Positions 38,831-60,740 of a DNA stretch of 64,000 bases are shown here, piece after piece. Each line of letters opens with the position of its first letter. Position 1 is the stretch's first letter. Source of the DNA: Bolinopsis microptera (lineage: Eukaryota; Ctenophora; Tentaculata; Lobata; Bolinopsidae); assembly GCF_026151205.1 (NCBI RefSeq), contig NC_087072.1, forward strand, positions 16,073,669-16,137,668, in the 5' to 3' direction. The notes below the pieces were generated by a model. That model had not been told where the DNA came from. It saw only the letters and a program-made list of their open reading frames with translations, and did no database searches. The translations under genes were made by a program, and so were the position numbers.

Positions 38831-39120
38831 TTGGTTTGGTTAGTGGTTCCTTCTCCGAGAATTAGATTTCCTAATTTGAGTTTAACAGGAACACGTTTCA
38901 CATCCAACTACTAAAACTGTACTCAAACTGTTGGTTTGGTTAGCGTTTCCTTCTCCCAGAATTAGATTTTCCTAATTTGAGTTTAACAGGAACACGTTTC
39001 ACATCCAATTACTAAAACTGTACTCAAACTGTTGGTTTGGTTAGCGTTTTCTTCTCCCAGAATTAGATTTTCCTAATTTGAGTTTAACAGGAACAAGTTT
39101 CACATCTAACTTGTAACTAC
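38831..39120. repeat. Three ~102-bp tandem repeats upstream of the secreted-peptide gene
   Basis: Units containing GAATTAGATTTTCCTAATTT and GAACACGTTTCACATCCAA begin near 38831, 38932 and 39033. They lie within the presumed promoter/5' UTR of the minus-strand gene starting at 38748. Confidence 0.85.
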
Positions 39121-40338
39121 TCAAACTGTACTCAAGTGTAATTTACAAATATCCTCGGCCAAAAATATTCTAATTTTCGTAAAATATTCTGAAAGGAATA
39201 ATTATAAACCCTAATTTATGATTCAGAGCTAGTAACCCTCCACTCAACGGATATAATATACATATTTAACGTGTTTAAGGGAAATAATCAATAATCTCTC
39301 GAAATAAGTTATCTTCCCAATGGGAATCACTGTTTGATCACTTACACGGTGGATCAGAGAAAGCTTATGCAAACTGAGAACTGATACGATGATATTTTCA
39401 AACAAACAATTGTATTAACTTAATGTATTGGTAAACATTACAAAATTCACAGTTAAATAATCTTCAATAACCAATGAGCTTGATCACTATTTAGTGTGAT
39501 CTGCTTTTAAAGGGTCACAGTATGGGTCACATACATTAGGTCACTCTTAAAATAGTAGCCCTAAACAGGATTCGAATGAACCATTGCATTTCGCTGAAGT
39601 CTGATTTGTTCCATGCAAAAAAAGTAAGCCTATTCTTTAAACAGGCCATCCTTAAAATTCTAATTTCTAATATTAGTTAAGTGGTACCTACTCAATTAAA
39701 TGTTAGGGTGACACTTTAAATTTAAAGCAACGAATTTAATCAGACCACTTTAATATCTAATTGTAAAGTGTTGCGTCGTTAATCTATATATAGATTTGTA
39801 ATTGCAATAGTAATTGTATATATACACAATTACTGTTAATTCTAAATAAGCATAATCTGATGTAAGTATAATTCTGATAAAAAGTTAAATATTGACTTGG
39901 TTAAATTCCGATAAAATGGTTGTCTGAAATATTTTTGAGGAAATGCTTTACCTTACTTCTTACATTCTCAGCGAACAACTATTCATCAAGTGCTGGACAT
40001 CTCAGATTTTCATAACTGAAAAACTCCAAAGCGTATTGCAGTAAACTACTATGGCACCAAAAAACAACAAGCCATCCAATCTAACAGTAAACAATCAAAT
40101 AATAAAAGTAAACAAAATTTCTAAAACAAGAATTGTAATTATTTAGATAGAAAATTCCACTACAATACGTAACAAACAAGATATTAAATCGTTATAGCGA
40201 AGGAATAAGATCAGACCGTCTTGATCATACACAATACATATCCCACAAACCAAAGATCTGAATTTTGATATCAAACATGGTCAATTACACCAATCAAACT
40301 TTGATGGATGGTTTAATGTTCCACAAAGTCAAAGTTTT
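39121..40338. other. Intergenic, nothing recognised
   Basis: AT-rich sequence between the secreted-peptide gene and the 3' end of the ABCG gene. I see no coding or RNA feature. Confidence 0.5.
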
Positions 40339-41186
40339 CTAGTTTGTCTTCTCTTTGATCGGTTTCCTCTTCTCCCTGACACGAAGCCACATGAATAAGA
40401 CAGAGAAGGCGAGGAAGCCAGCCGACAGTAGCAATATCGCTACAAAGTCTGGGAACCACACGTCATTCTGAGGGGTAGCAAGTTATTAACTAGTAGTTTT
40501 AACTCTTTTTAAAGGAGAGGGGTAGCTAAGGGGATTTTTAAATCCGTGCCTCTATTCCCCGAGAGTTTCCACGCCAACTGGCGGGAGCTCTAAACACACT
40601 TCGCGCCTCGTTGTGTGAATCCGGTGACTAGTGGCGGGAGCTCTAAACACACTGTGCCTTTTGACCCACGCCATGTGGCCCGTCGCACATGGCGTAGTGT
40701 GGGCAGGAAATCCGTGCCTCTGAATAGAGGCGCGGATTTGCTAAATCCACGCCAAGTGGCACAGTGTGTTTAGGTTAATCGGGTCATGTGGCCCGTCGCC
40801 ACATGGCGTAGTGTGGGCAGACGGGGGGGGGGGGCAATGACTACCAATGGAGACTTTTGGGGACTAATGGGGACTAAAAATCATGGGGACTAGAGGTCAA
40901 CTCGTTGACGTAATTCACCATTTGTCCCCATAAGTCCCCAGAATTTTTGACAGTTATTTATGGTTTTCAAGTTAGTTTAATAACGATACGATCGAGATGT
41001 TTTGTCCAAGATAAGAGTAGGATAAATCTAAATGGGGACTAATGGAGACTTTTGGGGACTAATGGGGACTAAAAATCATCTAAATGGGGACTAATGGAGA
41101 CTTTTGGGGACTAATGGGGACTAAAAATCATGGGGACTCTGGGTAAAATCGTTGACGTAATTCCCCAAGTCCCCAAAAGTAGTCAT

Positions 41187-41222
<36 letters not shown>

Positions 41223-44200
41223 GCAGACCCTTACTATTATGTATATAGTACTTGTCAGTATTGTGGGTGGTGTTGTATACTGTTTAGACGGCATTATCTC
41301 TAAACCCACATAATCTAATCCCTTTTTTGAGGAGAGTTCTGGAGAGGAAGACGTTGCAAACAAGAAATATATTTAACATTATGCGTAACATGTGTAAAGG
41401 TGTAAGATGTTTGCCATATTTCGTACAAATTGTGTTTCCTGTTGCTGATTGATCAAATACTCACTGCATCGAGATGGTAATAGCTGAGAACTTGGTTGCC
41501 GTCCTTGAATACACATAGACTCTCTGGAACTTTGTCACACTCTGCCAGAAAATAATTATCAAAGTTTCAAAGGTCAGCTAGTCGTGTAGCTTTACCTAAG
41601 TAAAGTAAGTGTGGTTGTTCTGTTCGAATGTGAACGTTACATTTAAATAAAGGTCTGACATATGAAGTTAAATTGCAGCAACTACATCATTATACAGTTA
41701 AAAAACACATTTAGTTGATGAAACAAATGTGGAATAAATAACTAACTGATTTCAGCGTCCTCAAACTCGCTAATAAGGACCATTCCAAAGGCGTACTTGA
41801 ACCAAGATCCATACTTTATAGGGTAGAAGTAGTACGGGGTAGACCTGATGAGAAACATGTAATACAGTAGACAAGAAGGTACATTAGTAGGTACCATCTC
41901 AAAAACAGGTCTTAATAAAATTCCTGTTCTTACTTCTTAGTTATAACTACAACCAGCTTAAAACTAAAAGTCAGATACTAATTAACCTAATTACTAACGC
42001 TTCATTTTGATAGAGTCCGCCAAACAAGAAGAAAGGCAGGATAATGAGAGGCGACAAAGCAGCTGATATGACGGGACTACCAGAGGCAGTTCCAACAAAG
42101 TACCCCACAGCTGTTGAGACTACAGACACTGCTAGACATGCTGCGTAGCATGTGAAGAATGCCACTACATTTCTTCTTAGTCCTGGTATGTGTGATCAGG
42201 GCTTAGTCGGGGGTTTGGGTGGTATTTATACATTCCAAACTGAACTCTCTACACCTAAATATTATGATAAAGATTAAACACTTATTTTCTAGGGTTCGAT
42301 AAAACACGTTATTTGTATAAAGTTAAGTTGGTACCTGCCATGAGCCAGGTAATGACCCACTGTATAAGTGTCAGGACTATTAGATAGGGCATCTGAAATA
42401 ATGGTTCATCGTTAATTGGAAAACGAACAGTCTTATAATATCTGAACCTATGGGAACTATAACATCATTAGGGGGGGGGGGGGGGGGGGGGGGGTCATAT
42501 ATAACCTTGTTCTTCTGGAGATTATAATCTGAAGAAAGAGTTTCACCTCTAAAGTAAAGCGAGGTATGAGAGCCCCCATAATTCCGTACATTCCATTTCT
42601 GTACTCCCGTTTTATAATCGGTAAGTCTTCTGGTATTGTCTGCGGAGAATGAATAGTTTTACCTTATATTGATGATTAATATATTATGTTATGATAATAA
42701 CTCAACACAACTGACAACTCAATAATTAACATGTCAGTGACTACAAAAGTAACCTAGACGAAACAGGAATTTACCGATCCTTGAAGGAAGACGTTGGAGA
42801 ATGTGATGGAAGTAATGAGGAAGAAGAGAAGTCCACTCTTATCTTGAACGGACTCTTGTCCATTACCCGTGTTGAAGTAGGCTAATCCACCCAGTAAAGA
42901 TATCACCTGAGAAGGTTATCGACCTTTTAGTTTGAGTCATTTTTTAATGTATACAGAGTACTTGCAATGTGGGCCACGATATCAGGCATATTTTTTAACA
43001 TTTGCTGATTAACCGATTAACTGATTAAAATTACAGATAAATATTATGATAAATATTCAGTTATTACTAAATACTAATGTTACTTACAAGGGCTTGAACT
43101 AATCTAATTTTGGTATAGCCAGGATTTCTGGTTACATTCTTCCAGGATCTGCCAAAGTTAGCCGACATTTGTGTAGAGAATATGCTCCTGGATCTAAGAA
43201 ATTAGAGGAGTTAATTATTAGAGAATTAGTTTGTGATTTGTGTCCCATAATTCAGCAAAACTATCAACAAGGGAATAAGTGATCGGGCATAATTTAATGA
43301 TGCAACCAGGAGGATATGTTTGATTCCTAGTCCTATGTAGGGTATGTAAGGGGTCGTTCACATATTACGTAATCACTTTTTGAACAATTTTTACCCCCCC
43401 CCCCCCCCCCTGCGTAATCAGTTTTACACAGCTATTGTGTCAAAATTACACTAGCGTAATCATTTGAAACCCCCCCCCCCCCCCCCCCTCGGCTGATTAC
43501 GTAATATGTGAACGACCCCTAATAAGCATAAATCAGATTACATTCCTGTGTATTTTCTGAGACTTTTTCCCAATCCAATAGCTTATTGAGTATCAGGTGA
43601 TCAAGACGTATGATCGATTGATTGTGTTAACAAATACTGATTTACACTCTGTTGACTGTTCAGATAAACAATTATTCTCAACACTCACCCTTCCAAATTA
43701 GTCTTAACATCTGATTCATTCTGTGCCTCTTTCTCCACAACCGCGATGTTTTTCTTCAATGTGGCAAGCTCTTCCGATTTAGCGAACACACCCGTAACTT
43801 CCTGCAATTTTAAGTTCATGAAATTATGTTGGATTATAATCGATAGGGTTGATTTACAGTTTATTTTTATTCATTAAAAAAAGATACAGCGAGTTATTTA
43901 TAATGTTTATGTCTAATGTCTATTATGACTAACAAAACAGTTAGAATTTTAACTTAAACTTACGTCGACTCTTTTTCTGCATTCTTCTTCCTCTCCAGGG
44001 ACAATGGCCAAAGTGAAGATATAGTGATCAGCCGGATTGTAGTTATCTGGACAGGGGTAGTTGACGGACTTGAAAAACTTGAGAGCGTCAGCACTGTCCC
44101 CCGTAAACGCGCATTTCCCCTCAGCAACCAGGTACAGCCTGTAATAATAAGAATATGAATTTTGTGTTGGATCATTTTTATTGGGATACACTTACAGCTG

Positions 44201-47200
44201 TTGAACGGCCATGAGAGAACCTAATTTTTTCAACCGTCTTCAAATTTGACTCCAATTATGGGATCATGACAAATGACTCAACGGCGTAATACCTTCTGGT
44301 TAATTTCTAATATTTTTATGCGTCATTCAATTAGACTGCGGAAAAAATTGTTCAGAATAAACCGTTTACACTCGGAAGAAAAAAAATTACAGTATTTCAT
44401 GGTCGGTTAATCTAAAATACTACATGTTTTGCCAGTCAACAAACATCTTGTCCGAGTGATACTGGACTTGGAAGAGAAGGCTGGAACAGTTTTACCTCAT
44501 CCATAGCCTGTCATGAGACACACCGTCACACTTCTCGCAAGAGTGACAGTTAATCCTTGACAGTCTTCCTGCCTTACAACTGATAATCCACCTGTCTCAA
44601 ACACCAGGAGCAAGGCACGTGGTCAGGTGTTTAGTCACGTGATACAGCTCTTATCTCCTCATTGGACAGCAGATATTGGAGTAAAAGCAGAGAGATTGTA
44701 GACAAGCTTTCATTTCTCGTTTGACGATGACGCTTCAACTGCAGTTTCAGTTTTACAATAAACTTAAAAACACCGCAGCTGATAAGGAGGTAGGTTCTGT
44801 TTTTTACCCAGTTTCTAATTTCTCTTTAGGATATCAAGGCTTTTAAATGCAAACTGTCAAAGACACTGTTTCCTTCAACGTTTTTACTTTGATGTAGGAA
44901 CTTTATTTATTACCACAGATTTTCATATAATGTTTGGAGAATTGAACTTGTGGTCGGATGATAATATTTATATGACATTTGACATTATCGACAGGTATTG
45001 GAAGTAATCACAGGTTACAAGGTACAATCATGGATAGACAAGGATCCTCTGCAGATAGTCGACCTAGTCAAGGTAAGTTTTAGAATATATCCGTCATTAC
45101 ACCAATAATTGTAGAAAAGAGTAACATTTTGAATTGAAATTTGTTTCACATTTTACATAATACAGTGCAGCGAGAATTGATATTTGAGCACAGTTTATGA
45201 TTATGGAATGATTAACGAATGTTTAGCGATCATATCTTCATAGAAACCGGGGAGGGGAGACCAGGACGCGCAAGACAAGACCATGCTGAACGAGATTATC
45301 AACCATCTGTCTTTCTCAACTTCTTTCCGTGGGTGGATGTCCTTCCCTGACTACGGCACCTCAGCTCTCTACTATACCCCATGTCTAGAGGTCGAACTTA
45401 GAGGTGAGTCACATTGAGTTAACAAGATACAACTATTTAAGTATTTAACTATAAACTAAGGGTTGTGTTTTGCTCTGCTGGCACATTAGATATTTAGTTT
45501 TTAACACTCCGTCATTTCATTCGTTACTACAAAGTACACTTTAGCTCGTTAAATTTAAAATGCACTTTCGTACAATTACAGGGGGGGGGGGGGGGTCCGA
45601 AAGTCAGTGTGCAAACGTTGGGTCTTATACCTCCACCGTGTTTTATATTTGAGAGTTGTTGCTTTGCATTTGGCATACTGTACCTACTTGTTCGATGATT
45701 CCGTTACAAAAATTTGAATATTTTAGACCACGCCCATTCAATATGAAAACACCTATATTGTTCTGGTGACAAATTCCTCGAACCAGTGGTGGTAGTTAGT
45801 CATACCAGAAAGAATTATTTCAATTGGACAGTCAGTGACTGAGCTATTAAGGTTAACGTTTGTACACTAACTTTCGGCCCACCCCTCCCCCCCCCCCCCC
45901 CCACCCCTGTATATAAATATGTTGCGGAAAAAGTAGTGGCCATTTTCAAAGGTATGTCAACTTCTGCTCCAAACGGCCTTCCTAGTTGAAGTTTTTGGGA
46001 GCAATGTGGGAAACCTCCCTCCCCAATCCCCATGATGACATTTACATTTAGTTGAACGTATAATTAACAATTCCGAACACTAAAAAGGTTCACTATTCAG
46101 GGGTGGAATTTTGTTCGATGATCACTCCCTTTGAGATCTACCCACACTTTGATACACTAAGCTCTGAGGATTGTAAGATATTGGCTGTGTTCGAACATGA
46201 CATACAGAGGATAATGATCTACATCTGCAAGGAAGGCTCCGTGTGGAACAGGATCTACCTTCACTATGATGATCTGGAGAATCACGTCGTTCAGCAGGTA
46301 TGTTATTTCTTAGTCCCTGTTTCCCTTTCTTCTATTTTATGTTTTTCTAATTTCTGTTTTATTTAATCTCGATGAGATTAACATTTAATTAATAGCAATT
46401 AAACGAGCTGGACGCTGGTAGTGGTAAGAGATCGTAGGCTTATATAGGGTTAGCTGATGAACAATGAACAATGAACATTCGATATTTTCGTCCAAACTGC
46501 GATAGTTTAACAAGTACAACTCAGCTTATTTTACCTATCACGCATAATATTATAATTAGTAGATGTTGGTAAAGCAGGAATCTTAATTATTTCTTATTTA
46601 ATTTTATGACCTAGATAACTGAAAAAGACACTACCCGTCTGGTACTTTGTCTGAAGTGCTGCCCCTCATTCTGGCAGTCACTACCCGAGGTATGCATCTC
46701 AATTCTCATTTATTTTCTGGTACAATTTACTCACATGCCTATAATTTAACTGTAGTGAAAAAGATATCACAATAATTCAGCACGGACTCAGTAATGATTC
46801 ATCGAGTCGATGATTTAATATTCGATAGAAGTATTTAGCTTTTTATGATTATAATTTGTGAACCATTCTCGACAGACGGTTGCCCAAAAAAGAAAGAAGC
46901 TCTCCCGAGACCACTGTGCCGGCGATCAGCTGGAAAAGAAACTGCGTCTAAAGACCCCCTGGACAAGAATAAGGACCCTGACTGATGATGAGGAAAAGTG
47001 CGACATTCCAAAGTGCTCCACCCTCGTGTTGACATACCCAACAAACGGCTCAACACTCAGCAGGATCGTGTCCGGGTTCAAGAAGCACAAGTACCAGTGT
47101 TACTTCACCAAGTTTGATGATCTGAGGTACCCGGAGAACGGTATGAGGGGGAATGGAAAGTGCTGGATCGAACGGCTGATGGAGAGCAACCCACTGCACC

Positions 47201-50200
47201 TTGACAATATAAACTTGAGATATTCTCTAAAATGTCTGGAATCTCTGGGCTTCCAGTTTTTGGACAAGCTTCACAAGACCTCTACAGAACATAAGAATTC
47301 ATTCTTTAGATTCCTTCAGCAAAAGATAAAGGAAAACGATGTTGAAAGAATTGACTTGGTCACCCAGACCATTTTCAAGCTGGTGCAGGCTTTTGACAAA
47401 GACCCATTCTTGGACCCAGCAACTGTCTTCCAACTGTACTTTGACAAGGTTGACGTGAAGCCGTTCAACGTAGAGTCCCATTACCAATTTATCAAGAGGA
47501 TAGTAGTTACGCCGTCTAGAACCATCTTTGTGCCACCAGAGCCCATCGCTATAAACAGAATTCTTCGTCAGCACATAATGTACGTGGAGAATTTTGCTAG
47601 GGTCTGCTTCAGAGACGAAGACTTCTCTCAGTTCAACGTACATTCGGAGCAAGCGACATACAACGTTCGGAAAGTTATAGATGAGGGAATCAGGATCTCG
47701 GATGACATCGTGTTCCAGTTCTTAGCGTGCTCCAACTCCCAACTAAGATCGCAAGGACTCTGGTTGTTTTACCCACAGTGTCCCATCACAGTTGAGTCCA
47801 TCAGGGATAGCATTGGAGAGTTGAACAAGATGAAGACAACCCAAAAGTACGTGACTAGGATGGGGCTCGCTTTCACAGCAACTGACTTCTCCTTGTCTGA
47901 AGAAGTTGAAATCCAGGAGATTCCAGAAAAAGAGAGGATAGTTGGGAACAAAAGGTTTATCTTTAGTGATGGAGTAGGCTGTATCTCACCAGGAGTAAGG
48001 GACCTTATCGTGAAGGAGAAGTATGGGTATCAAGCTGACTATAAGCCAATAGCATTCCAAGTGCGGGTCGGAGGATGCAAGGGTATGGTTGCTGTAAACC
48101 CAGATCTAGATGGCCTACTACTTCAAATCCGTCCCAGCATGAAGAAGTTTGAGTCTACTCACAAGCAGATAGAGCCATGTGGGTACTCGGGGCCCAGAGA
48201 GTTGTACATGAACAGACAGGTAATAGCTATCTTACGGGCACAGGGGGTCCCAGACAACAACTTTATCTCCCTGCAAAACAAAAGTCTCATAGAGATAGCA
48301 GACATGTTGACTAAAGAACCACTTGCCTGCCACGAAATGGGATCAATGCTGAGGGTCAGGGTGTCTAATCTTGAGAGAAGTTCCATCAGAATAACAACAG
48401 AGCCATTCCTGCGAAGACAGCTTGTTTCTCTCTACAAGTTTAAGGTTCGAGATGCACTAAACAAGACTCGCTTTAGGATCGACATTGACAAAGGCAGACA
48501 AATGAAGGGAATCATGGACGAGACAAACACTCTCAACTATGGAGAAGTGTTTGTTCAGTACACCGAACTCAACGGGACTAACTTGAAAAGAATCCTTATA
48601 GGCGACCTGTTTGTCACTAAAAATCCATGTCTCCATCCAGGTGACCTAAAACGAGTCCGGGCCGTTGACGTTCCAGAGCTTAGGCATCTGTATGATGTTG
48701 TGGTGTTCCCTTCAAAAGGACAAAGGCCCATACCTAACGAACTATCAGGTTCAGATCTTGATGGTGATGAATATTTCGTATGTTGGGAGCAAATGCTGAT
48801 GCCAAAGAAAGATTGCGAGGCTGCTGAGTACTATGTTGAGAAATTAGATCCGATAAAAGACTCCTCAACCGAGCCACCGCCGGAGTTCGCCGATGCTCAA
48901 ATTAATGACTTTGTCTTCAACTACATAACCAAGGGTTCCAAATTGGGTCAGATCAGCAACGCCCATGCTATCTGGGCCGATCGACTAGAAAAGGGTGTCC
49001 TCTCCAAACAATGTGTTTCTCTAGCTGAAAAACACAGCGATGCAGTTGACTTCATAAAAACTGGCATAGCACCAGTCTTCGACTTTTCCGAGAGAAGCTT
49101 GATCTACCCAGACTGGATGATGAAGCCAGACAAAGCCGCTTATAGCAGTAAAACTGCAACAGGGAAGATGTTCCATATTGTACAGGGTTTGGAGCACTCG
49201 GTCCTAGATCTGAATATTCCTGAAGAAAACATCGCCCCGGACGAAATATTCCTACTGGATGAAGGTCCAACGGATGAGGAACTAGAGAGTGCTACCAAAC
49301 TTTACACAACGTATTGTACGGAGTTATCCAACATCATGGTGGCCTACGGAATTGCAGATGAAGGAGATATTGCTGCTGGCTGTTTGAACTCCATAAAGAG
49401 AAGCCTCGCTAAGGAGCATGAACGGAACTATGATATGCGGGAACAGTGCCTGTCCATGTTTAGATCCCTCCAAAGGAAGTACAGAAGAACGTTCTTTTCA
49501 AACCTTGGTGTATCTCAAGAGAACTGGAGACAGGAAGAAGAGAAGGTGCTGAGACAAGCTGCAGCCTGGTACTTTGTCACTTATCACAAACCACAACCAT
49601 ACCAAGATCTCATCCTGCTTAGCTTCCCCTGGTGCGTGGCTAACATTCTCATCAGGATTCCAGAGCTCATGAACACGTCAACAATACCTAACTCGATAAG
49701 AGACAAGCTGAGGGCAGAGCTGAGAGAATGGTACGGTGTCAAGTTGAGGAAAGGAGCTGAGTTCAAAGATCGAGGTAAAGAAGTCCTGAAGCTTTTGAAT
49801 AGTCCTGAGATGGTCAGTGTGACAGATATTAGCCGATACACCTATGGACTGATTATTGGAGAAGCCTTTATTTATTATGTGAACGAATCTCCAAAAGATT
49901 TTGCTCTTGAACTAAAGAGCTGGCTAGCGAAGCAAAGTTTCGACGCAGACGTTTCGGGTGAACTGAAAGACTTAGCGACAGACTTCCAAAAATCGAGCGA
50001 AAATTGGGCTGTCTCAGAAATCTGCGTGAACGATAAGATGATGAAAGTTATTGTCACAAATGATAAACTCTTGCTGAGAAAGGTGAAGATCTTAAAACAG
50101 TACTGCCAAAAGTACAAAATTCTGGGTCACACCATGTTTTTAATCTTAAACTGGGCTGAAAAGAACAACATAACCACTAACGCGGGTCTGGAGGCAGATA

Positions 50201-53200
50201 TTGGGATAAGCTTCCTGGAATTCATGTTAAGGAAACAAGATGGCCAGATCTATGAGATGTCCGAAGAGTCCTACCTCCTTGATGATGTGATAATCGGTCA
50301 GTATCCCCTCAAGAACACAGCCACGTTGTACCTGGAGTATCTGAAGTACATAATAGGAGACTGCAAGATGGAAGGAGAAGATGACATCCTAGGGACTGAT
50401 CTACTGGAGATTGCTCGTACACTACTCGGAACTGAAAAGTGTATGATCGCACTGATGAGAGAGTATCATTTCGTTTCCTACGCTCTCAAGTTCGAGTCTA
50501 ATGAGAGCTACAAGCAGAACAATATCATCAGGAAAAAAGATAAGAAGATGTGCTTCAACATTGCTCGAGCTACTTCCTTCTGTTCGAGCTTCTTTAACGA
50601 TCCCGACATCACTGAAACCTTCGAGACGGGCCAAAAGATCGAGATAAAGATCAGAGAGACGGAACTGGGATCTATTAACGCTCTGGTGTTGGAAATTTGG
50701 GGTGACAATCCCCAGAAGATGAACGAAATTGCCGATGCTTTTGAAATCGACGAAGATAGATTTCAATTATTTGGCAACTATTTGTTCATCCGTCAAAAGA
50801 ATTTCAATCAATTCAATTTCCTTGCTCCAAAGACGATCGACAAGCCGCTTAAAAAGTATTTCTCCCTCCGGAAGCACGAGTCAAAGCCTCGGGAGAAAAA
50901 TCCACTGAAACACGATATAGATCCGATGTATTACAATAACGATAATAACAATAGAGACGAGAGTTTGAAGGAGCTGGTCTACAGGGAGATTCTCCGAAAG
51001 ACCCGTCTGATGAGAGATGGGCTCTACAACCAGATTTCTCACGGGAAACTGACCATCAACACCACTTTCGGAAAGCTGAAAATCAAACGGTGTGAAAATG
51101 GTAGTCTGGACAAAGAATACATGTCTTTGTTCCTAGACACCAAAGGAAACATCTTAAAGAAACTTAGAGGAGTCACCAAAGCTACTCCAAAGGTAACGAC
51201 AAGTTACGTGTTTAATGTGATATACGAGGGTATTTCCTACAAAGTACATTTCGACAAATTCCACAAACTGAAGTCGCTATCTTTGACTGACATCGTATGG
51301 ACAGACATGATGATCCTGCATGACCGGGGAGTAGATATGAACATCATGATGACATCAACCCACTCGCTGAAAGGGGAGCGTTTGAACCATCTACCCTTAA
51401 CATACGAGCTTTTTAGAGGCACTAAGAAGTGGATTGATCGGGTAGACAATGGGAAAGGGATCCAACTAATAGATAGGAACGAAATACCTTGCTTCATTTC
51501 CTCCATAGAAGTGATTACAGAGAAACAGTACAAGTTCTGGAAGGATCCTGCTCTGGCCGATATGACAGTTTCTGAGCTGACAGTCGAGGTGTATCAGGGA
51601 TTGGAAAAAGGTTTCGTAAGGCACTCCAGGACTTATTTTGAGCTTAGACTCTCAGCGACTATAGACACCCTCTTAAACACAGAGTTCTTGAAGACATATG
51701 AGAATGTGGCGCTGGATATAGCCACTGTGGATATGAATACACGAACACCTAGAAGAAGTGGGAGTTGGAGAGCCGCGACCTCTGACCCAGACTCAGTTCC
51801 AATTCTTCCACGCAGACCCAACAAAAGTGGTCCTCGCCAGACTACTGAAGACAGTGCACCTACCATTACCAACATCTACCCCTCACAGTTTCCCGGAATA
51901 GCCGAGGAAAATTCAGTTGCGAGTCGTAGTAATGTGAGTACCGGTGCTCCATCATTGACCAGGTCTGGTGACTTACCACCTTCAACTAGTAACAGTGTCA
52001 GTAGACTAGCAAGACAAGTTAGGATGAGAGCCATGGCAACCAGTGGAGATCACGACGAGTTTGAGCAACTCACTCCTCAACAGTTGGAAAGTAAAGACGG
52101 ACTTACAACAGAAGATTACATATTTCAAGTTGAACAGCCACCGGTTTTTCACCCCATCCCAGGTCCGAACTCCAGCTTTACCAACTACACAGATTTGCAA
52201 ATCGGAAATGATATTTCTTATCATCATCCTCTTAGTTATCCTACTGTTATTGGAACGCATGATCCATCCGGTGATGAACTAAGTCTTAGCTTGGATCCTA
52301 CAACTGTTCAGGGAATAGGAGCTGGATATCAACTATCTTCACAGGAATCCAATGAAGCACCGGAGCTTGAGGATCTGGATCAGTTTGACATGACCTTCTT
52401 GGACCCCACACAGCTGCTCCCAACACACGAGATAACAGAACCAAAATCTCCGTCTCCACACAGCAACGCTTCCTCTGGTCCCGACATTATTCTGGTGGAA
52501 CAAACCTTTACGGAGTGTCCAGGATCAGGTGTTTCTGGTAACCCCTTTGAGGAGGAAGTTCATGATGAACCTAACGTCAGCGATTATGAAGACAGGAAAT
52601 TCTTGGATTAGCTCCTCTAACTGCCCTTATACTCCTTAGGTAAGCTTCTTAGGTTATTAAAGTTATGTCAGGTGAAATTAGCCCTTGATCGAACCTGAGT
52701 GGTCAGAGATCAATTCAAGTGTATATTAGAATTCAAATTAAAAATGGAAGAACGTTCAGTTTTCAATCTGACAATATTATATACACGATTGAAATTCTTG
52801 AACTGGCTTCGATTAGCTGAAATCTTTATAAATAGCTGATTTGCGAGTCATGCTAGGGTTACCATATAGTTCGGAAAATATATAAGTTTTAAGAACGACA
52901 CTCTTTCAGGTGAAAGGAGGTTCCTGACGTTTTGAAGCACCTACCCATTTTGAAGCGGAACTGTGTTTTGTTATTTTAGATTTTTTTCAACAATATTGAC
53001 ACTTGAAAATGCATTTAAAAGCATGAGCATATCTTTATTTGATCAGTTTTTTAGATGAAAGGTTTTACACATACCAAGTTTTAAGTTGAAAATAGTTTGT
53101 ACAGATTTGATGCAGTATGTTTTGAGCGAATCATAGATTTGTTGAACTTAAAATCTTCCAGTTGGATTGAATGATTGAATATTTAAGCTAATATCGTTTT

Positions 53201-56200
53201 TGATAAATGTTAATTTCGTTATGAATAAATGAACTTATTGCTTAATAGTCATTTGTCCAAGATACAATATTTTTAGTTTATTAGACGATGCTAAAAGTTG
53301 TTGGAAAACTAAAATAAACTCACTGATCAAACATAGCAAAGACTTCAGAGGTAGGCTGATGTATCGTACAGAGCACAGTTCTGTTTGCTTTAGCTAACTT
53401 TCCAATAATTTTAACAATATTCCTTGCCATGAATGAGTCCAGACCTGAAATAAAACTATTAAATATATGAGACTATGATACATTGTATCAGGATAATGTG
53501 GTACTCTCCTTGTGTATAAGAATAACAGAGTAAGCAGCATGTAAATCATTACCGCTGGTAGGCTCATCAATGAAGAGGAGTGGAGGGTTCATGAGGAGTT
53601 CACAAGCAACTGACAGTCTCTTTTTCTCTCCGCCAGAAATACCACGAATCATACCACCAGGCTGCCCACAGAGGCTGTTCTCTATTTTCTTCAACCCCAA
53701 CTAGAAACGAGAGAAAGTTAATACAAATCTGAACAGATTTGACAGGCAATGCATGGTCAAAATGTCCATCACATATATTTTAACTCTTATTACAACAGCG
53801 TAAGAAAAATTGAAGTTAATCATTGCCATGATAACCATTTGATATCGTATTTAGATCGCACGATTAAATCGATCGACGCGAATCGAATCTTGATGCATTG
53901 CGCCATGTCATGCATCCTGAGCTGGATACGCTACATATTATATGCATGAGCGCGATGCATGCAATCATAAATCAAGAGGCTTGCATATATTGAACATATT
54001 GACACGGGTGCAGAGTTGAGTCTGTACGGAACCTAGTAGTTTCAGATCCTTGTTTAACTTGCCGTACAGCAAGGTCATCCACTACTTTAGCCCGGCGAGG
54101 CACATAACTCCCTCTACAACTCCATGACAAATGTTTCATATATACTAGCCGAATTCACAATGCCATGTGCGCGCGCCGCGCCATGCGCTGCTGCATGCGC
54201 TGCATCGATTTAAAACAACCGCGCGTCAAAGAATTAAATTAAGGCCATCGCGCGCTGCAGAATCTAGATCAAGAAACCGGTCACGTACTGTCCCTAGAGG
54301 GTAAAATTAAAATACCGCATCAATTACCACCAGCCGACTCAGAATACGAACGTCGTTCTACAGCTGAGGTTGTGCCTTGCATAGAATTCAGAATGTAATC
54401 CACTTTTAGTTTCTACCATTGAACCCCTCCAGGAGTATCAAGCGCTAAATTGCCGGCCAACACCGTCTTTAAAAAATCTATGATGCTGTTGCAATTTGGA
54501 CCAAAATTTGTAAGCTTTTGAACAAAAAATTTAAAGAATGGACTTTTTCGGCTCTTTGCCACCGCTGTTCTTGACTGACTCCAGTGCTCAAATCACAATG
54601 AATGTAGACTGCCGGTGAAGAATGAAGATTATGTGTATCGTGTAAATTATACCATTTAACTCAATTAAACCCCACAATCTACTTCCAAGCTTTTTAAAGG
54701 CTGAAATCAGGAAGGATTATACCGACTTTTGTGCGGAAATTCTATTTTCAAGTTTTTCGTGGAGGAATTTTGCGTAAATTCTGGACGAATGCCGAGCACA
54801 GTCATTAGTCGTTACACTTAACAATATTCCATGTGACTAGCAGAGTGATTATATTTCATCATCGAAGTGTAGTTTCAGTGTCTAACTTCACCAAATCACA
54901 CAAACCTCGTGTAAAACTTTGTTTACTTTTCTCTTTTTCTCCTTCATTTCAACATCTCGCCCCATTCTGAGATTCGCCTGAAATGTTAAACATATGTATA
55001 AATGTGACATATTAAATATTAATAATCAATTCTGGGTATGTGTCGTGTCTAGGCATTTGTAACTCATATTTCGTAGCCGTAGAGTAACCATAAAAAGTAA
55101 ACTACAAAACACAAAAATTGTTTGATAGGCTTGCTGAATATTACATTAATTTAATTTGGAAATATTATGACTAGGAATTAGATTTTTAAATTCCTCACTT
55201 TAAGCCACTGGGATGTAGGGACACACACTATTATTATTAAAGCAAGCTTCTAGTTTCGGGATAGCCTGTAGCAGGCAACGCTCGATACTAATGATTCTAC
55301 AGACCTACACAAGTGCAAGTAAGTAGGTAAATATTTCATGCTAGGCATGTGGCACCCATTACGGACACGCAGACTAAAATTAATGGAAATAATTACCGGA
55401 CTTTATTTTTCACGGACCTTAAAGGACCAGTTAACTGAAAAATTTGTAGTCTCCAATTTGGCTAAGATTTAAATCAGCTGTGACAAACTGGTAAAGAATC
55501 GTATCGCCGAAAGAACCAACTCTCTAGCGTACGTGTAACGCGTGTTATTGCAATAATAAGCTGTGGCCTCGTGACGTCACGAAGTCCCTCAGTGCGCGCT
55601 GACATAGCGTAATACGTTGCAAATGTTTATCGTTGTCATTAAAACACGTGTTACTCACTCAAATTTTAGAATTATGACTATTACCCGAGTTCTCCAAAAT
55701 CCTTATAGTTTTGGCTATCATCCTAACTAAAGGAATAGCTGATTGGATGTACAGTGCTCACGTCATGATTTTAAACAGTGATATAGGTTCTTGGACAGAG
55801 GCGGTTGAATGTACGGTTAGAAAGTTTCTGCTATTACAGTTCTTATGTCATATGTGATAATTTTGGATTGTTTTCATTGCTTAATTACACAAGCAGGGAG
55901 ACTGTACCGATTATTTTTCCCCAGTCCATGAAACTCTAACGAATTTAAAAGGATCTAGATAAGTAGGAGATAGTTTGTTCAATTCCGAGAGCAATTATAT
56001 TTATAGCATAGCGAAATTTCTAACTTTAATCTGCATGTGTCAGCCAGTACAGGAGACAAGAAGTCTGGCTACTTTACGGCCGTTCCTCTGGGACCATTAG
56101 TAGAAGTAGCTTCTATCAGAACAGTGCCGTGGGAACAGAATTCCCGCCAAAATACCCGGTCTACCAAATAGTAATAGTGATTGGAGTGTACGGTGTGCGG

Positions 56201-58342
56201 TGTGTTACAGTTTTGAATTATACTTCGGCTTACCTAGCTGTTATCCTAATTGCATTATCATCGGTACATAACATAAATAAACTACTGGTAAGTTTAAATA
56301 CCAAGTGCAAACGTGTTCAGTCAATCGACCCACTGAACAAATATAGAATTTCCAAGATCCTATTATTCTTTGGCCATATATTAATACGGCACGATCGATT
56401 GTTAGATGGTTAAACGACTATACAATTCTAAAACTATGAGCTAGCACTTTAATCTAAAAATACACTTTTTATATTACTCCTGATTTTTACATTTCACGTA
56501 AAACATTGTCGCCACAGGTTGATCATGGACACTAACAGCTTAATTTGAGATAAATGACTATGAGTTTCTCTAAAGTTAACTCTAAAGTTGTGTAATCCAG
56601 TCATTTATGGACATTTATGGAAATGAACCTGCAAATGTTCAGATACTCACGAAACTTTGCACAGACCTTCCCGAAGGTATGAATAAACGATTTTCGTTTG
56701 GAGACATTTGTTTGACAGTGGAGAAAACCCAGGAGGACCACGCCCATATTGACCCAATAACGTAACCGACCCCTTGCTTCTGAAGGTCGTAGATACTTCA
56801 AAATAGGCTTAAACGAAGCCACATATGCATGTTTATATAGGAGTTATCGAGCAACACATGGCCTAAAATCCTTACTTTTCGAGAAATTCGCCAAAAACCA
56901 TTTTGGGCGTGGTGCTGAGCCCATTTTCGATAGGATCGTGATAGAGTCTTTAGACACTAGACAGGGTGCAAAAGAACCGCAATTAGCATATTAATATATG
57001 ACTTACGAACAAACATATGCCTTAAAGTGCTTACTTTTTCAGTTATTGGCGAAAAACTGATTTTCGGTTCCAGAAATCATGCAAAACTATGGGTATCTGG
57101 TAAATTGGGCTATGAAGGTTTTTGAATGTGTGCAAATTGTGCAGAATGGCCATGTTTATATACAACTTATGAAGCAACATGTACCCTAAATTACTTACTT
57201 TTCGAGTTATTCGGGGAAAAACATTGTATTATGTCCATTTTCTACCTGTAAAATACATTCTCACGAGCTCCTCTGCGCGCGCAAGGGACTTCGTGACGTC
57301 ATCGCCAAAATAATACAAACGCTATTTACACGCGTTAGAGAGCAGTTAGAGATTTAGGAATTTCGACTCGTTGCTTAGTTTGCTATTAATCACAATCTGT
57401 CAAAATATGAGTATAACTTTTTTTTCAGTTAACTGGTCCTTTAATGCCACAGAAATTATTTTCACGGACATAATTATTCACGCTAAGGTCTTCAGCGTGA
57501 AAGTAATGTTCGTGATAATTATGTCCGATAAGGTAAGCTACACATTGTTTTCTTTGCTAACATTAAAATTAAAAGATACGTGAAACACACAAATCATATC
57601 CACTTGTATTGATAGTACAAGGAAATACACAAATCATGTTTATTGTTGTATACACTGTACACTATACCTAGCTGTTCAAAGAGGAACACATTCCATTTCC
57701 GTGCATATATCCTTAAAGTGAAAATGAAATAAAAGCGTATTTCAAGAGGAATATATCATAGGGATTATAATAAGAAAACAACCTTATCGTAGTTACAATA
57801 AAGAGAGTGGTGTACCAATGTAAACTCACGTGAAACATTAAGACCTCTTTGACTGTTAGAGTTCCAATAAAGAAATCCTCCTGTTGGACGTACGCAGAGA
57901 GAAGGGATGTTGTGCGGCCCGTCAGTGGCTTTCCGTTCACTAGAATCGTACCTGAAAATTGTATATTATTCATCTTATTTTTTGATGTATTTAACGTACT
58001 TGGTGATAGTTACCAATTCAAAACTTATTTTAAAGCCTAAATCCGGAATTAAGATAACAGAAATGAGCAGTAAAACTGGTAACCATCACCATATTCAAAA
58101 TTTTACTAGTGAACGAGAGTAAGCAAGCAGTTTACGTGCTACATTGTCGCAACATTTGTGAACTGCTGTCTGTAACCTTGGTTATTATGCTTGTAAGTTA
58201 GAATATCTGGAGGTTTGATATTCAAATGCCTGGCCTGCCTGCCGTCTCATTTGGTGTAATTAACCGGCTATTTAAAACATTTCTAGGATTAAAGACCAGA
58301 CCTAAGTACTGTCTAATACCCTGTAATCCTGTAGTACCCACT

Positions 58343-58380
<38 letters not shown>

Positions 58381-59947
58381 TTTAGTAACACAGTCACGTA
58401 GGCAGGATTATCTGGCTATGTGGGTAGCTGTAGTAACACTGTTAGATATAATAGTGGTCAGTGGACCGCATCTAATACTCGAATTACAGTGTCTACGTAT
58501 ATACATATATATACATAATACATTAGTTAGCCTCAACAGTCAATGAAATACAACAATTGTCTTGAATCCCAACTTCTCTGATTTAACTTTGCAGACATTA
58601 AATATCCTAGTCACATTCGGCTCTTAACCTCGAGACAATTTCCTCTAGTCCATTTCAAGCTCTCTAAATTTGACACAAGTGAGCACTGAACCATACGTCA
58701 GTTAAGCACTACCCAGATCTAAAGAATGACGACATCAAAGAAATCTTGAAATATCATTAACATCTACCTGATTCATCAAGCTTGTGGTCGTTCTTCATAG
58801 CTAATGTGTTGAGGAGAGTCGTCTTGCCTGCACCACTGTGTGTTGCAATATTACTTAGAATTATGCCCAAATAGGTGACATAAAGGTCAATCGTTCATGA
58901 AATTACGATTAACAGAAAAAAGAGGTTTCAAGAGTATAATAAGTAACTAGTAACTACATAATATATAATATTATCACTATACATTAGTCCGTAAATTTAT
59001 TATTCGGGCCAAAGAAACATATTTATAACAGTCAATAATTTTAATAACCATAATCTCCCCCCCCCCCCCCCCCCCCCCCCCCCCCATAATATTACCGACT
59101 AAGGTAGTTAGTAGTTTCTAATTAAGTAATGTAAAGGGTGTCTCACCTTGCCCCCATGATTGCCATGAATGTTCCGGGCTTGCATAAACCAGAAACTGAA
59201 ATTATATTAAGTCATGTTTACTTTTCAACTTCAGGAAAAACATATATAACCCGTTGTCATGGTGACTAAAAGTTACAGGATTCAACACAATGGGCTAATC
59301 ATGGCTTTAAAGCTGCGCATATTGAATAATATTCAATATATATTAAGACGCAATGAAACTATCGGACTACGATGTATGGGGACTGCCACCCCATTACATT
59401 CTGTTATATACCTCCTTTAAGAATTTCTTTTTTAGTAATAGTGTCCTTGTTGGAGCGACAACAGGCAGGACCCTTCCCTGTGTCCACAGATAGAGACACT
59501 TTCACGTCCTCCCATGACAGAGTCACTTTGGAGTATGCACCAAATCTGTTAGTCTCATCATCTAACTGCAAATTGGAGTATTTTAATAAAACATTCAATC
59601 AAAAACAATTTGATTAAAGCAAATAGTAAATTAGAGTGCTTTTAGTTGGGAGGAAATGTTACAAATGAAGCATGCAATTAGATTGTGATCTAGAATCATC
59701 AATAATTTCTTGGCAAGCTTAAGATAAAGTATCATAAAGTTGAACTCTAAAGTTGAACTCTAAAGTTGAACTCTAAAGTTGAACTCTAAAGTTGAACTCT
59801 TTCACTTACTGCACTAAAATCAAGACTGTCACTGGATGTAACTGTTGCGTCAGGTACGTTACCACTGTTGGGGTCCACATCTTCCAAACTGAGACTGTTG
59901 TTAGCAGGTAAAACAATTACAGCAGCAGATTCGTCTTCATAACTCAT
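40339..59947 (-). CDS. ABCG (White-type) half transporter, 18 exons
   Basis: Coding exons: 59947-59810, 59565-59412, 59195-59147, 58835-58768, 57951-57830, 54977-54906, 53700-53553, 53444-53324, 44138-43964, 43801-43689, 43193-43088, 42906-42775, 42639-42547, 42392-42335, 42182-41999, 41844-41747, 41541-41465 and 40467-40339. All phases agree, giving 678 residues, normal for an ABCG half transporter. The nucleotide-binding domain comes first: Walker A GASGAGKTT (112-120), Q-loop YVQQED, signature ISGGEKKR (222-229), Walker B LLFIDEP (D246, E247), H-loop H279. A membrane domain with about six helices follows, with the RNGMYG segment and a cysteine-bearing last extracellular loop. It would work as a homo- or heterodimer exporting lipids, pigment precursors or drugs; the substrate cannot be read from sequence. 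Intron 8 (44139-53323) contains the antisense RdRP gene. Confidence 0.95.
40540..40822. repeat. GC-richer repeat block in last ABCG intron
   Basis: ACATGGCGTAGTGTGGGCAG occurs twice (about 40687-40706 and 40801-40820), each preceded by CATGTGGCCCGTCGC. GGCGGGAGCTCTAAACACAC also occurs twice (40579-40600 and 40633-40653). Probably an older mobile-element fragment. Confidence 0.7.
40823..41220. mobile_element. hAT-like MITE with 8-bp target duplication
   Basis: The ends are inverted (poly-G then GCAATGACTACC... / ...GTAGTCATTGC then poly-C). GGGCAGAC flanks both sides (40815-40822 and 41221-41228), an 8-bp duplication typical of hAT elements. Inside, a GGGGACTAATGGAGACTTTT block is repeated. 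It lies in the last intron of the ABCG gene. Confidence 0.8.
43349..43520. mobile_element. MITE family B, well-preserved copy
   Basis: 27-bp inverted ends beginning AGGGGTCGTTCACATATTAC flank two poly-C tracts. It sits in the ABCG intron between exons 43193-43088 and 43801-43689. Confidence 0.85.
44727..52611 (+). CDS. Eukaryotic RNA-dependent RNA polymerase, nested antisense in ABCG intron
   Basis: Six exons in phase: 44727-44789, 44995-45072, 45244-45403, 46101-46297, 46615-46689 and 46876-52611, giving about 2,102 residues. The polymerase synthesises RNA on RNA templates to make or amplify small-RNA precursors. Hallmarks of the cellular QDE-1/EGO-1/RDR family, in order: an N-terminal [11 protein letters not shown] strand; FSDGVG (554-559); a QVRVGGCKG block; [18 protein letters not shown]; and the catalytic [11 protein letters not shown] with DLDGD at 818-822. 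[11 protein letters not shown] segment and FPWCVANIL follow. The family core usually ends near here, but about 1,000 residues continue: a helical region with [11 protein letters not shown] near 1280, a beta-rich stretch (about 1560-1800), and a Ser/Thr/Pro-rich, acidic tail from about 1820. All three catalytic aspartates are intact. The in-frame extension upstream of 46876 is intron. A poly(A) signal AATAAA lies near 53224. Confidence 0.95.
45581..45907. mobile_element. MITE-like inverted repeat in RdRP intron 3
   Basis: Poly-G followed by TCCGAAAGTCAGTGTGCAAA at the left is mirrored by TTTGTACACTAACTTTCGG and poly-C at the right. It is non-coding and lies between RdRP exons 3 and 4. Confidence 0.7.
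52612..53323. other. 3' flank of RdRP and end of ABCG intron 8
   Basis: The RdRP 3' UTR probably occupies most of this stretch, with AATAAA near 53224. That is only about 100 bp before the antisense ABCG exon 53324-53444, so transcripts from the two strands come very close or overlap. Confidence 0.55.
53754..54905. other. ABCG intron with CG-rich ATGCATGCGC-type repeats
   Basis: Around 53870-54250 there are many short overlapping palindromes (GCATGCGC, GCGCGCGCC, ATGCATGC) that resemble a degenerate mobile element. No terminal repeats could be paired and no coding signal was seen. Confidence 0.4.
55419..57444. mobile_element. 2.0-kb non-autonomous TTAA element in ABCG intron
   Basis: Perfect 24-bp inverted ends TTAAAGGACCAGTTAACTGA plus AAAA; the right end is 57421-57444. 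An imperfect inner extension reaches about 190 bp (ACGCGTGT and GACGTCACGAAGTCCCT shared by both arms). Three internal units of about 160 bp with a conserved CTTACTTTTCGAG core lie near 56860-57205. No transposase frame was found. Confidence 0.8.
57454..57533. repeat. Hairpin repeat (family D), copy 2
   Basis: Nearly identical to 35470-35552, with the outer arms better preserved here (CGGACATAATTAT / ATAATTATGTCCG). It directly abuts the right end of the 2.0-kb TTAA element. Confidence 0.8.
58346..58380. repeat. Poly-C tract
   Basis: About 35 consecutive C in an ABCG intron. A similar tract of about 28 C lies at 59058-59085 in the next upstream intron, and a poly-G tract at about 42472-42494. 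Confidence 0.9.
59741..59805. repeat. GTTGAACTCTAAA tandem repeat
   Basis: Five 13-bp units immediately beside the donor of the first coding exon of the ABCG gene. Confidence 0.9.
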
Positions 59948-60221
59948 ACCTCATGGATAATGGATATAGTATTTTGTTCAATAATGCCACAAGTACATAT
60001 TTTGAAATTCCAAAGTTCACAAAAGCATATATTTCACCTTTTACATAAAAGATACCAAAAACATACACATTTCCAGGTACAAAAGTTAAAGTTATTTATA
60101 ACAAATAATGGAGCTTACTAAAACCAAAAAATTCAGTGTGAATTTAAATGGCATACAAAGAATACAAGTTTACCCATTGATAATTAAGAGCGTCAGACTT
60201 AGAACCTTTTTTTAAATGCAA

Positions 60222-60640: not shown

Positions 60641-60740
60641 NNNNNNNNNNNNNNNNNNNNNNNNNNNNNNNNNNNNNNNNNNNNNNNNNNNNNNNNNNNN
60701 NNNNNNNNNNNNNNNNNNNNNNNNNNNNNNNNNNNNNNNN
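60641..60740. other. Assembly gap of 100 N
   Basis: Exactly 100 N, the usual placeholder for a gap of unknown size, so adjacency of the two sides is not proven. Confidence 1.

What the first reader, a model, noticed from the sequence alone, without database searches (positions are those of the whole stretch)
44139..53323. Complete RdRP gene nested antisense inside an ABCG intron
The ABCG exons on either side join in frame (ca|g gives Q in [11 protein letters not shown]), so the 9.2-kb interval is one intron, and it holds a whole six-exon RdRP gene on the opposite strand. Every ABCG pre-mRNA would carry the antisense of RdRP mRNA. An enzyme that acts on RNA templates is thus itself encoded opposite a transcript that could pair with its own message, which invites a self-regulatory model (inference).
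Basis: partly seen in the sequence, partly recalled or inferred. Interest (0 to 1): 0.75.

Follow-up and report, generated by a model that had tools for sequence, protein, structure and literature searches.

The report
RdRP gene inside an ABCG intron
An intact gene for an RNA-copying enzyme sits backwards inside one intron of an intact transporter gene, in what is very probably a comb jelly; the arrangement is real, but genes inside introns are common in such animals and nothing here shows that the enzyme regulates itself this way.

Summary
ABCG is one continuous gene on the minus strand (18 coding exons, 678 aa, no internal stop, 17 of 17 introns GT-AG). Its intron 8 is exactly 44139-53323 (9,185 bp, phase 2). 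That intron contains an intact plus-strand RdRP gene with six coding exons (44727-52611, 2,102 aa), Pfam RdRP E = 2.1e-145, DLDGD motif at aa 818. There are no Ns in 40000-60000.

The assembly's size and 13-chromosome layout match the ctenophore Bolinopsis microptera. In another ctenophore, 2,357 genes nested in introns were counted (PMC8527503 passages). Two ABCG paralogs here have an intron at the same codon and phase, only 253 and 1,311 bp long, so RdRP most likely entered an older intron.

ABCG and RdRP coding exons do not overlap; only unspliced ABCG RNA could pair with RdRP coding sequence. No RNA data were available, so self-regulation is neither supported nor excluded. Argonaute-family and Dicer-like genes are present, so an siRNA test is possible.

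Verdict: a new member of a known kind, a nested intronic gene.

The parts
40339..59947 (-). ABCG half-transporter gene, coding span, 18 exons, 678 aa: exons 59810-59947, 59412-59565, 59147-59195, 58768-58835, 57830-57951, 54906-54977, 53553-53700, 53324-53444, 43964-44138, 43689-43801, 43088-43193, 42775-42906, 42547-42639, 42335-42392, 41999-42182, 41747-41844, 41465-41541, 40339-40467
   Evidence: splice model without internal stops, 17 of 17 introns GT-AG; ABCG1 match E=3.2e-80; Pfam ABC_tran and ABC2_membrane on single exons
44139..53323 (-). ABCG intron 8, 9,185 bp, phase 2 (host intron)
   Evidence: donor GTGAGT, acceptor TTACAG; same codon and phase in paralogs on C7 and C1
44727..44789 (+). 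RdRP coding exon 1 (first ATG after an in-frame stop)
44995..45072 (+). RdRP coding exon 2
45244..45403 (+). RdRP coding exon 3
46101..46297 (+). RdRP coding exon 4
46615..46689 (+). RdRP coding exon 5
46876..52611 (+). RdRP coding exon 6 (5,736 nt): whole PF05183 domain and a C-terminal region of about 900 aa without a confident family
48754..48768 (+). DLDGD motif (aa 818-822); that this is the catalytic aspartate motif of eukaryotic RdRPs is recalled
   Evidence: position
53224..53229 (+). AATAAA, possible RdRP polyadenylation signal; cleavage 10-30 nt downstream would fall before ABCG exon 8
   Evidence: use not testable here
53313..53318 (+). second AATAAA; if used, the RdRP 3' end would run into ABCG exon 8
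   Evidence: use not testable here

Best explanation
This is an ordinary host-nested gene pair. An RdRP gene came to lie, in antisense orientation, inside an ABCG intron that already existed. RdRP would be transcribed from its own promoter in the roughly 590 bp between ABCG exon 9 and its ATG, and end near 53.24 kb. ABCG would be transcribed through the 9.2-kb intron, which is spliced out. RdRP presumably makes second strands on RNA templates, feeding Dicer and Argonaute. Shown: both gene structures, the nesting, the same intron position in two paralogs, and the presence of Argonaute-family and RNase III genes. Inferred: separate promoters, transcript ends, direction of the insertion event, RdRP function, and the absence of obligatory coupling.
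For: Both genes are intact with GT-AG introns. An intron at the same codon and phase occurs in two other ABCG paralogs, 253 bp (C7, L040) and 1,311 bp long (C1:4.12 Mb, L038), too short for an RdRP gene; the only other RdRP locus found in the genome is on C3. Without the RdRP gene (44727 to about 53250) about 660 bp of intron 8 would remain (588 + 73), within the range of the other 16 ABCG introns (108-2,852 bp). Nested intronic genes are common in a related ctenophore: 2,357 in 1,654 hosts, 12.24% of exonic bases (PMC8527503 passages). [quoted passage not shown]
Against: The time and mechanism of insertion are unknown: no direct repeats of 11 nt or more link the two edges, two 10-nt matches against 1.1 expected, and no A run of 6 or more follows the stop. 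Only four multi-exon paralogs were checked for the intron, and two of four share it. Neutrality of this pair is not tested; PMC3786989 itself reports a nested pair kept across Drosophila and possible constraint (passages), and conservation in other ctenophores, if found, would argue the same here.
Confidence: 0.85

Rival explanations
1. Transcriptional interference. Polymerases on ABCG and RdRP collide or occlude each other inside intron 8, so that the two genes are expressed in different cells or stages. No double-stranded RNA is needed.
For: Opposed transcription units over about 8.5 kb. Interference between nested and host genes is reported in human cells, and some human nested genes are quoted as negatively correlated with their hosts (PMC3192792 passages); antisense competition is suggested as a control in ctenophore nested genes (PMC8527503 passages).
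Against: Surveys of 109 human and 752 fly pairs quoted in PMC3786989 found no significant host-nested expression correlation. No expression data here.
Confidence: 0.15
2. Self-limiting RNAi. ABCG intron 8 RNA pairs with RdRP mRNA, Dicer cuts the duplex, and the siRNAs lower RdRP, an enzyme whose product feeds the same pathway.
For: Antisense over the whole RdRP gene. Argonaute-family genes (19 Piwi-domain matches counted exon by exon, 17 over the cut-off) and one locus with two RNase III matches. Endo-siRNAs are abundant in the ctenophore Mnemiopsis, and in a sponge nearly half of unique endo-siRNA clusters on coding genes fall on antisense-overlapping gene models (PMC6211395 abstract and passages).
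Against: No overlap of coding exons, so mainly nuclear unspliced RNA could pair; endo-siRNA clusters under-represented in introns; no RNA data; the arrangement is common in general.
Confidence: 0.04
3. Retrogene (a reading of the origin, compatible with the best explanation). RdRP entered the ABCG intron as a cDNA copy, which would explain the 5,736-nt exon, and gained or kept a few 5' introns.
For: All five RdRP introns lie in the first 573 of 6,309 coding nt (6e-6 if positions were uniform and independent). The C3 paralog matches in twelve tblastn pieces over aa 75-1115, of which aa 192 onward is one exon in the window gene. Seven ABCG paralogs have an open frame covering about 500 aa or more of the query, so long intron-free stretches are not rare in this genome.
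Against: No target-site duplication or poly(A) tract; five introns present; no close intron-bearing parent (C3 copy 24-70% identical per piece). 3'-biased intron loss in place would look the same.
Confidence: 0.3
4. Assembly artefact: an RdRP locus wrongly joined into the ABCG intron.
For: The window has a gap at 60641-60740 followed by error-like sequence (by eye), so the assembly was gap-filled nearby.
Against: No N in 40000-60000; both genes have clean frames, and the nested coding sequence reaches to within 0.6-0.7 kb of the ABCG exons on both sides.
Confidence: 0.03

Closest known systems
Nested intronic genes of the ctenophore Hormiphora californensis (PMC8527503, passages read)
   Same: [quoted passage not shown] 2,357 such genes in 1,654 hosts
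   Different: Those were defined from an Iso-Seq based annotation; here only coding models are available
Drosophila 2mit in intron 11 of tim2 (PMC3786989, passages read)
   Same: Protein-coding gene antisense inside one intron of an unrelated host gene
   Different: 2mit has two exons and its nesting is reported as conserved in Drosophila; conservation is unknown here
Eukaryotic cell-encoded RdRPs with solved structures (7w84; 7roz, RNA-dependent RNA polymerase 2; that these are plant enzymes is recalled)
   Same: Polymerase region aligned over about 720-730 residues, E 8.9e-95 and 6.8e-94; DLDGD motif
   Different: 2,102 aa, with about 900 C-terminal residues without a confident family; QDE-1 of fungi matches far less (E 2.9e-14)
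Human ABCG1
   Same: Aligned over residues 92-665
   Different: Host intron 8 carries an RdRP gene; intron positions of human ABCG1 were not compared

Membership tests
Nested intronic gene (host-nested pair) | Nested coding sequence lies wholly in one intron of another gene | tested here: met
   44727-52611 lies within 44139-53323; no coding-exon overlap
Nested intronic gene (host-nested pair) | Host exons on both sides form one continuous gene | tested here: met
   678 aa open frame over 18 exons, ABCG1 alignment crosses the junction
Nested intronic gene (host-nested pair) | Both transcripts exist as separate RNAs | not testable with these tools
   no RNA data held
Eukaryotic RdRP (PF05183) | Full domain above the curated cut-off and DxDGD motif | tested here: met
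   486 bits against cut-off 23.8, positions 1-580 of 582; DLDGD; the meaning of the motif is recalled
Eukaryotic RdRP (PF05183) | RNA-dependent RNA synthesis | not testable with these tools
   needs an enzyme assay
ABCG half-transporter | ABC domain followed by ABC2 membrane domain in one chain | tested here: met
   Pfam hits on single exons; alignment to ABCG1 and ABCG2
cis-natural antisense (exon-exon overlapping) pair | Mature transcripts overlap | tested here: inconclusive
   no coding-exon overlap; the AATAAA at 53313 could give a few bases of 3' overlap with ABCG exon 8; untranslated parts unknown
Retrogene | Intronless copy with poly(A) tract and target-site duplication from an intron-bearing parent | tested here: not met
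   five introns present; no repeat of 11 nt or more and no A run; C3 paralog distant

The most novel reading that the evidence does not exclude
The RdRP gene is held in check by antisense RNA from its ABCG host: intron 8 RNA and RdRP mRNA form a duplex that Dicer and Argonaute turn into siRNAs against RdRP, a feedback on small-RNA amplification in an animal lineage without microRNAs, kept by selection as a nested pair.
Probability: 0.04. Interest if true: 0.7.

Novelty: new member of a known kind. Interest (0 to 1): 0.25.

Why it matters
As a gene arrangement it adds one well-resolved case to a common class, with evidence that the host intron is older than the nested gene. [quoted passage not shown] If antisense coupling were shown, an RNA-silencing enzyme would be under control of its own pathway, which is testable with existing kinds of data.

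Tried and rejected
Two separate ABCG genes: rejected, since the halves are complementary, join in frame, and no match above 67% identity lies outside the window locus. Retrogene hallmarks: not found. Selection for transcription through the intron: polyadenylation hexamers on the ABCG strand were not depleted. Identity from COX1: no match in the assembly, so the organism was inferred from assembly figures instead. C-terminal RdRP region: no PDB match up to E = 5, only Pfam matches below their cut-offs, and a single-sequence fold of 632 aa with mean pLDDT 32 was useless, so no fold search was made. Eight other ORFs of the window gave no Pfam match up to E = 0.1. Conservation of the nesting in other ctenophores: the own genome is listed as having no relatives here, so not tested. 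A base rate of nesting in this genome was not computed; literature values were used. The intron check covered four multi-exon paralogs (L040 and L038 share it; L036 reads through; L041 was not resolved, its most sensible join lying a few codons upstream); other multi-exon paralogs listed were not checked. RdRP subgroup (alpha, beta, gamma) was not determined.

My first two ABCG splice models had wrong boundaries at a few exons and gave internal stops; one search has the corrected boundaries, checked again. No base was changed.
Full report
Observation. I rebuilt both genes from the sequence. On the minus strand, 18 exons from 59947 down to 40339 splice into a 678-aa protein with no internal stop, and 17 of 17 introns are GT-AG. 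Against solved structures it aligns over residues 92-665 with human ABCG1 at E = 3.2e-80; ABCG2, ABCG5 and ABCG8 also match, and the top hit is the double-length transporter CDR1 at 9.4e-84. The interval 44139-53323 is its intron 8: exon 8 ends FDQ with the first two bases of the Q codon, exon 9 supplies the third base and continues LYLVAEGK. On the plus strand, six coding exons between 44727 and 52611 splice into 2,102 aa, 5 of 5 introns GT-AG. The polymerase family PF05183 matches almost end to end, E = 2.1e-145, and two cell-encoded RdRP structures (7w84, 7roz) match at 8.9e-95 and 6.8e-94. The DLDGD motif is at aa 818. The finding is therefore correct as described, including its coordinates.

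The RdRP gene is lopsided: five short exons with 573 coding nt, then one exon of 5,736 nt that holds the entire polymerase domain. If intron positions were uniform and independent, all five falling in the first 573 of 6,309 nt would have a probability of 6e-6. A second RdRP lies on contig C3. It matches the window protein in twelve pieces at 24-70% identity over about 16 kb, so it has many introns where the window gene has none; its splice sites were not worked out. This fits a cDNA-mediated event or 3'-biased intron loss, but hallmarks of recent retroposition are missing. Long open frames are not rare here: seven ABCG paralogs have a frame covering about 500 aa or more of the query, five of them nearly the whole conserved part, and the RNase III locus is listed with an open frame of 1,626 aa.

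The host intron is probably older than the insertion. I checked four multi-exon ABCG paralogs for an intron at the FDQ codon. Two share it in the same codon and phase: C7 (FDR|ICLVSEGE, 253 bp) and C1 at 4.12 Mb (FDN|IMLLHNGQ, 1,311 bp). C3 at 3.75 Mb reads through, and C5 was not resolved, its most sensible join lying a few codons upstream. The seven paralogs with long open frames read through this codon too. Neither short intron can hold an RdRP gene. With the RdRP gene taken out, about 660 bp of intron 8 would remain, within the range of the other 16 ABCG introns (108-2,852 bp).

The organism. The own genome has 264.65 Mb in 232 contigs. Thirteen sequences of 15.2-26.2 Mb make up 97.5% of it, and the fourteenth has 0.2 Mb. 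Bolinopsis microptera is reported with 265 Mb, 13 chromosomes and a largest chromosome of 26.2 Mb (PMC11797021, passages), and with 97.23% of bases in 13 scaffolds, gap-closed with a long-read tool (PMC10232365, passages). The reported scaffold number, 346, differs from 232. Only one RNase III locus, with two domain matches, was found, as expected for a ctenophore with one Dicer and no Drosha (PMC3563456, passages on Mnemiopsis). I infer Bolinopsis microptera or a near relative; no sequence-level identification was possible.

How ordinary it is. In Hormiphora californensis, 1,654 genes host 2,357 nested intronic genes, with 12.24% of exonic bases in nested genes (PMC8527503, passages). A sponge paper calls about 10% nested exonic bases a normal value across animal phyla, and adds that annotation method matters much (PMC10282587, passages). 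In Drosophila about 6% of genes are nested, and nested genes are frequently in opposite orientation; expression of 109 human and 752 fly pairs showed no significant correlation, and nesting is said to be considered neutral, although 20-34% of pairs are kept among Drosophila species (PMC3786989, passages). About 63% of nested human genes are on the opposite strand, and some show negative correlation with their host (PMC3192792, passages). So neither nesting nor the antisense orientation needs a special explanation.

The self-regulation idea. It is possible: ABCG pre-mRNA would be complementary to RdRP RNA, Argonaute-family genes are present (19 Piwi-domain matches counted exon by exon; genes not counted), Mnemiopsis has abundant endo-siRNAs, and antisense gene pairs are proposed as a source of endo-siRNAs in a sponge (PMC6211395, abstract and passages). 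Against it: coding exons do not overlap, so pairing over coding sequence would need unspliced ABCG RNA; unique endo-siRNA clusters were under-represented in introns in that paper (in the Drosophila validation part as I read the passage); and poly(A) hexamers on the ABCG strand are not depleted. In amphioxus, which has RdRPs, the authors found no candidate siRNA population (PMC6396948, abstract). Simple transcriptional interference is a likelier form of coupling, if there is any. None of this was tested with RNA.

Relation to print. A search for RdRP with nested gene, intron and antisense listed one paper, on human transposable elements. Searches combining RdRP with ctenophore terms listed 4, 7, 7 and 6 papers; in the passages I read of PMC6211395, PMC9923473, PMC10328071, PMC6085071 and PMC8191739 I saw no statement on whether ctenophores have cellular RdRPs; the other listed papers were seen as listings only. 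This is not proof that it is unreported, since supplements and most subscription papers were not searched.

Verdict. Real, well defined, and ordinary in kind: a new host-nested pair. Interest 0.25, mainly because the nested gene is an RdRP in a probable ctenophore.

Noticed in passing
L002-L012 (own genome C3:2484080-2500126): A second eukaryotic RdRP gene, matching in twelve pieces over about 16 kb, with an intact [13 protein letters not shown] motif; with the window gene this makes two RdRP loci in a probable ctenophore.
   Followed up: partly
60641-63000: A 100-N gap followed by about 2 kb rich in homopolymer runs that looks like unpolished long-read gap filling, upstream of ABCG exon 1 (judged by eye).
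   Followed up: no
49855-52608: About 900 C-terminal residues of the RdRP have no PDB match and no Pfam match over its cut-off; DUF7752 comes nearest. A single-sequence fold failed.
   Followed up: partly
L013-L019 (contigs C10, C4, C1, C6, C3): Seven ABCG paralogs with an open frame covering about 500 aa or more of the query, including two neighbours on C4 and two on C1, beside intron-rich ones.
   Followed up: partly
43350-43519: Element in ABCG intron 10 with inverted 26-base ends (GGGGTCGTTCACATATTACGTAATCA) and long C runs inside; looks like a MITE (family not searched).
   Followed up: no
41189-59085: Eight poly-C or poly-G runs of 15-37 bases in 40000-60640, mostly in introns.
   Followed up: no
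38880-39110: A unit of about 101 bp present in three tandem copies downstream of ABCG (marker string at 38880, 38981 and 39082).
   Followed up: no
L061, L062 (own genome C2:9738852-9740081): The only RNase III locus found carries two domain matches in a frame listed as 1,626 aa, so Dicer-like and largely in one exon; no second locus that could be Drosha.
   Followed up: no
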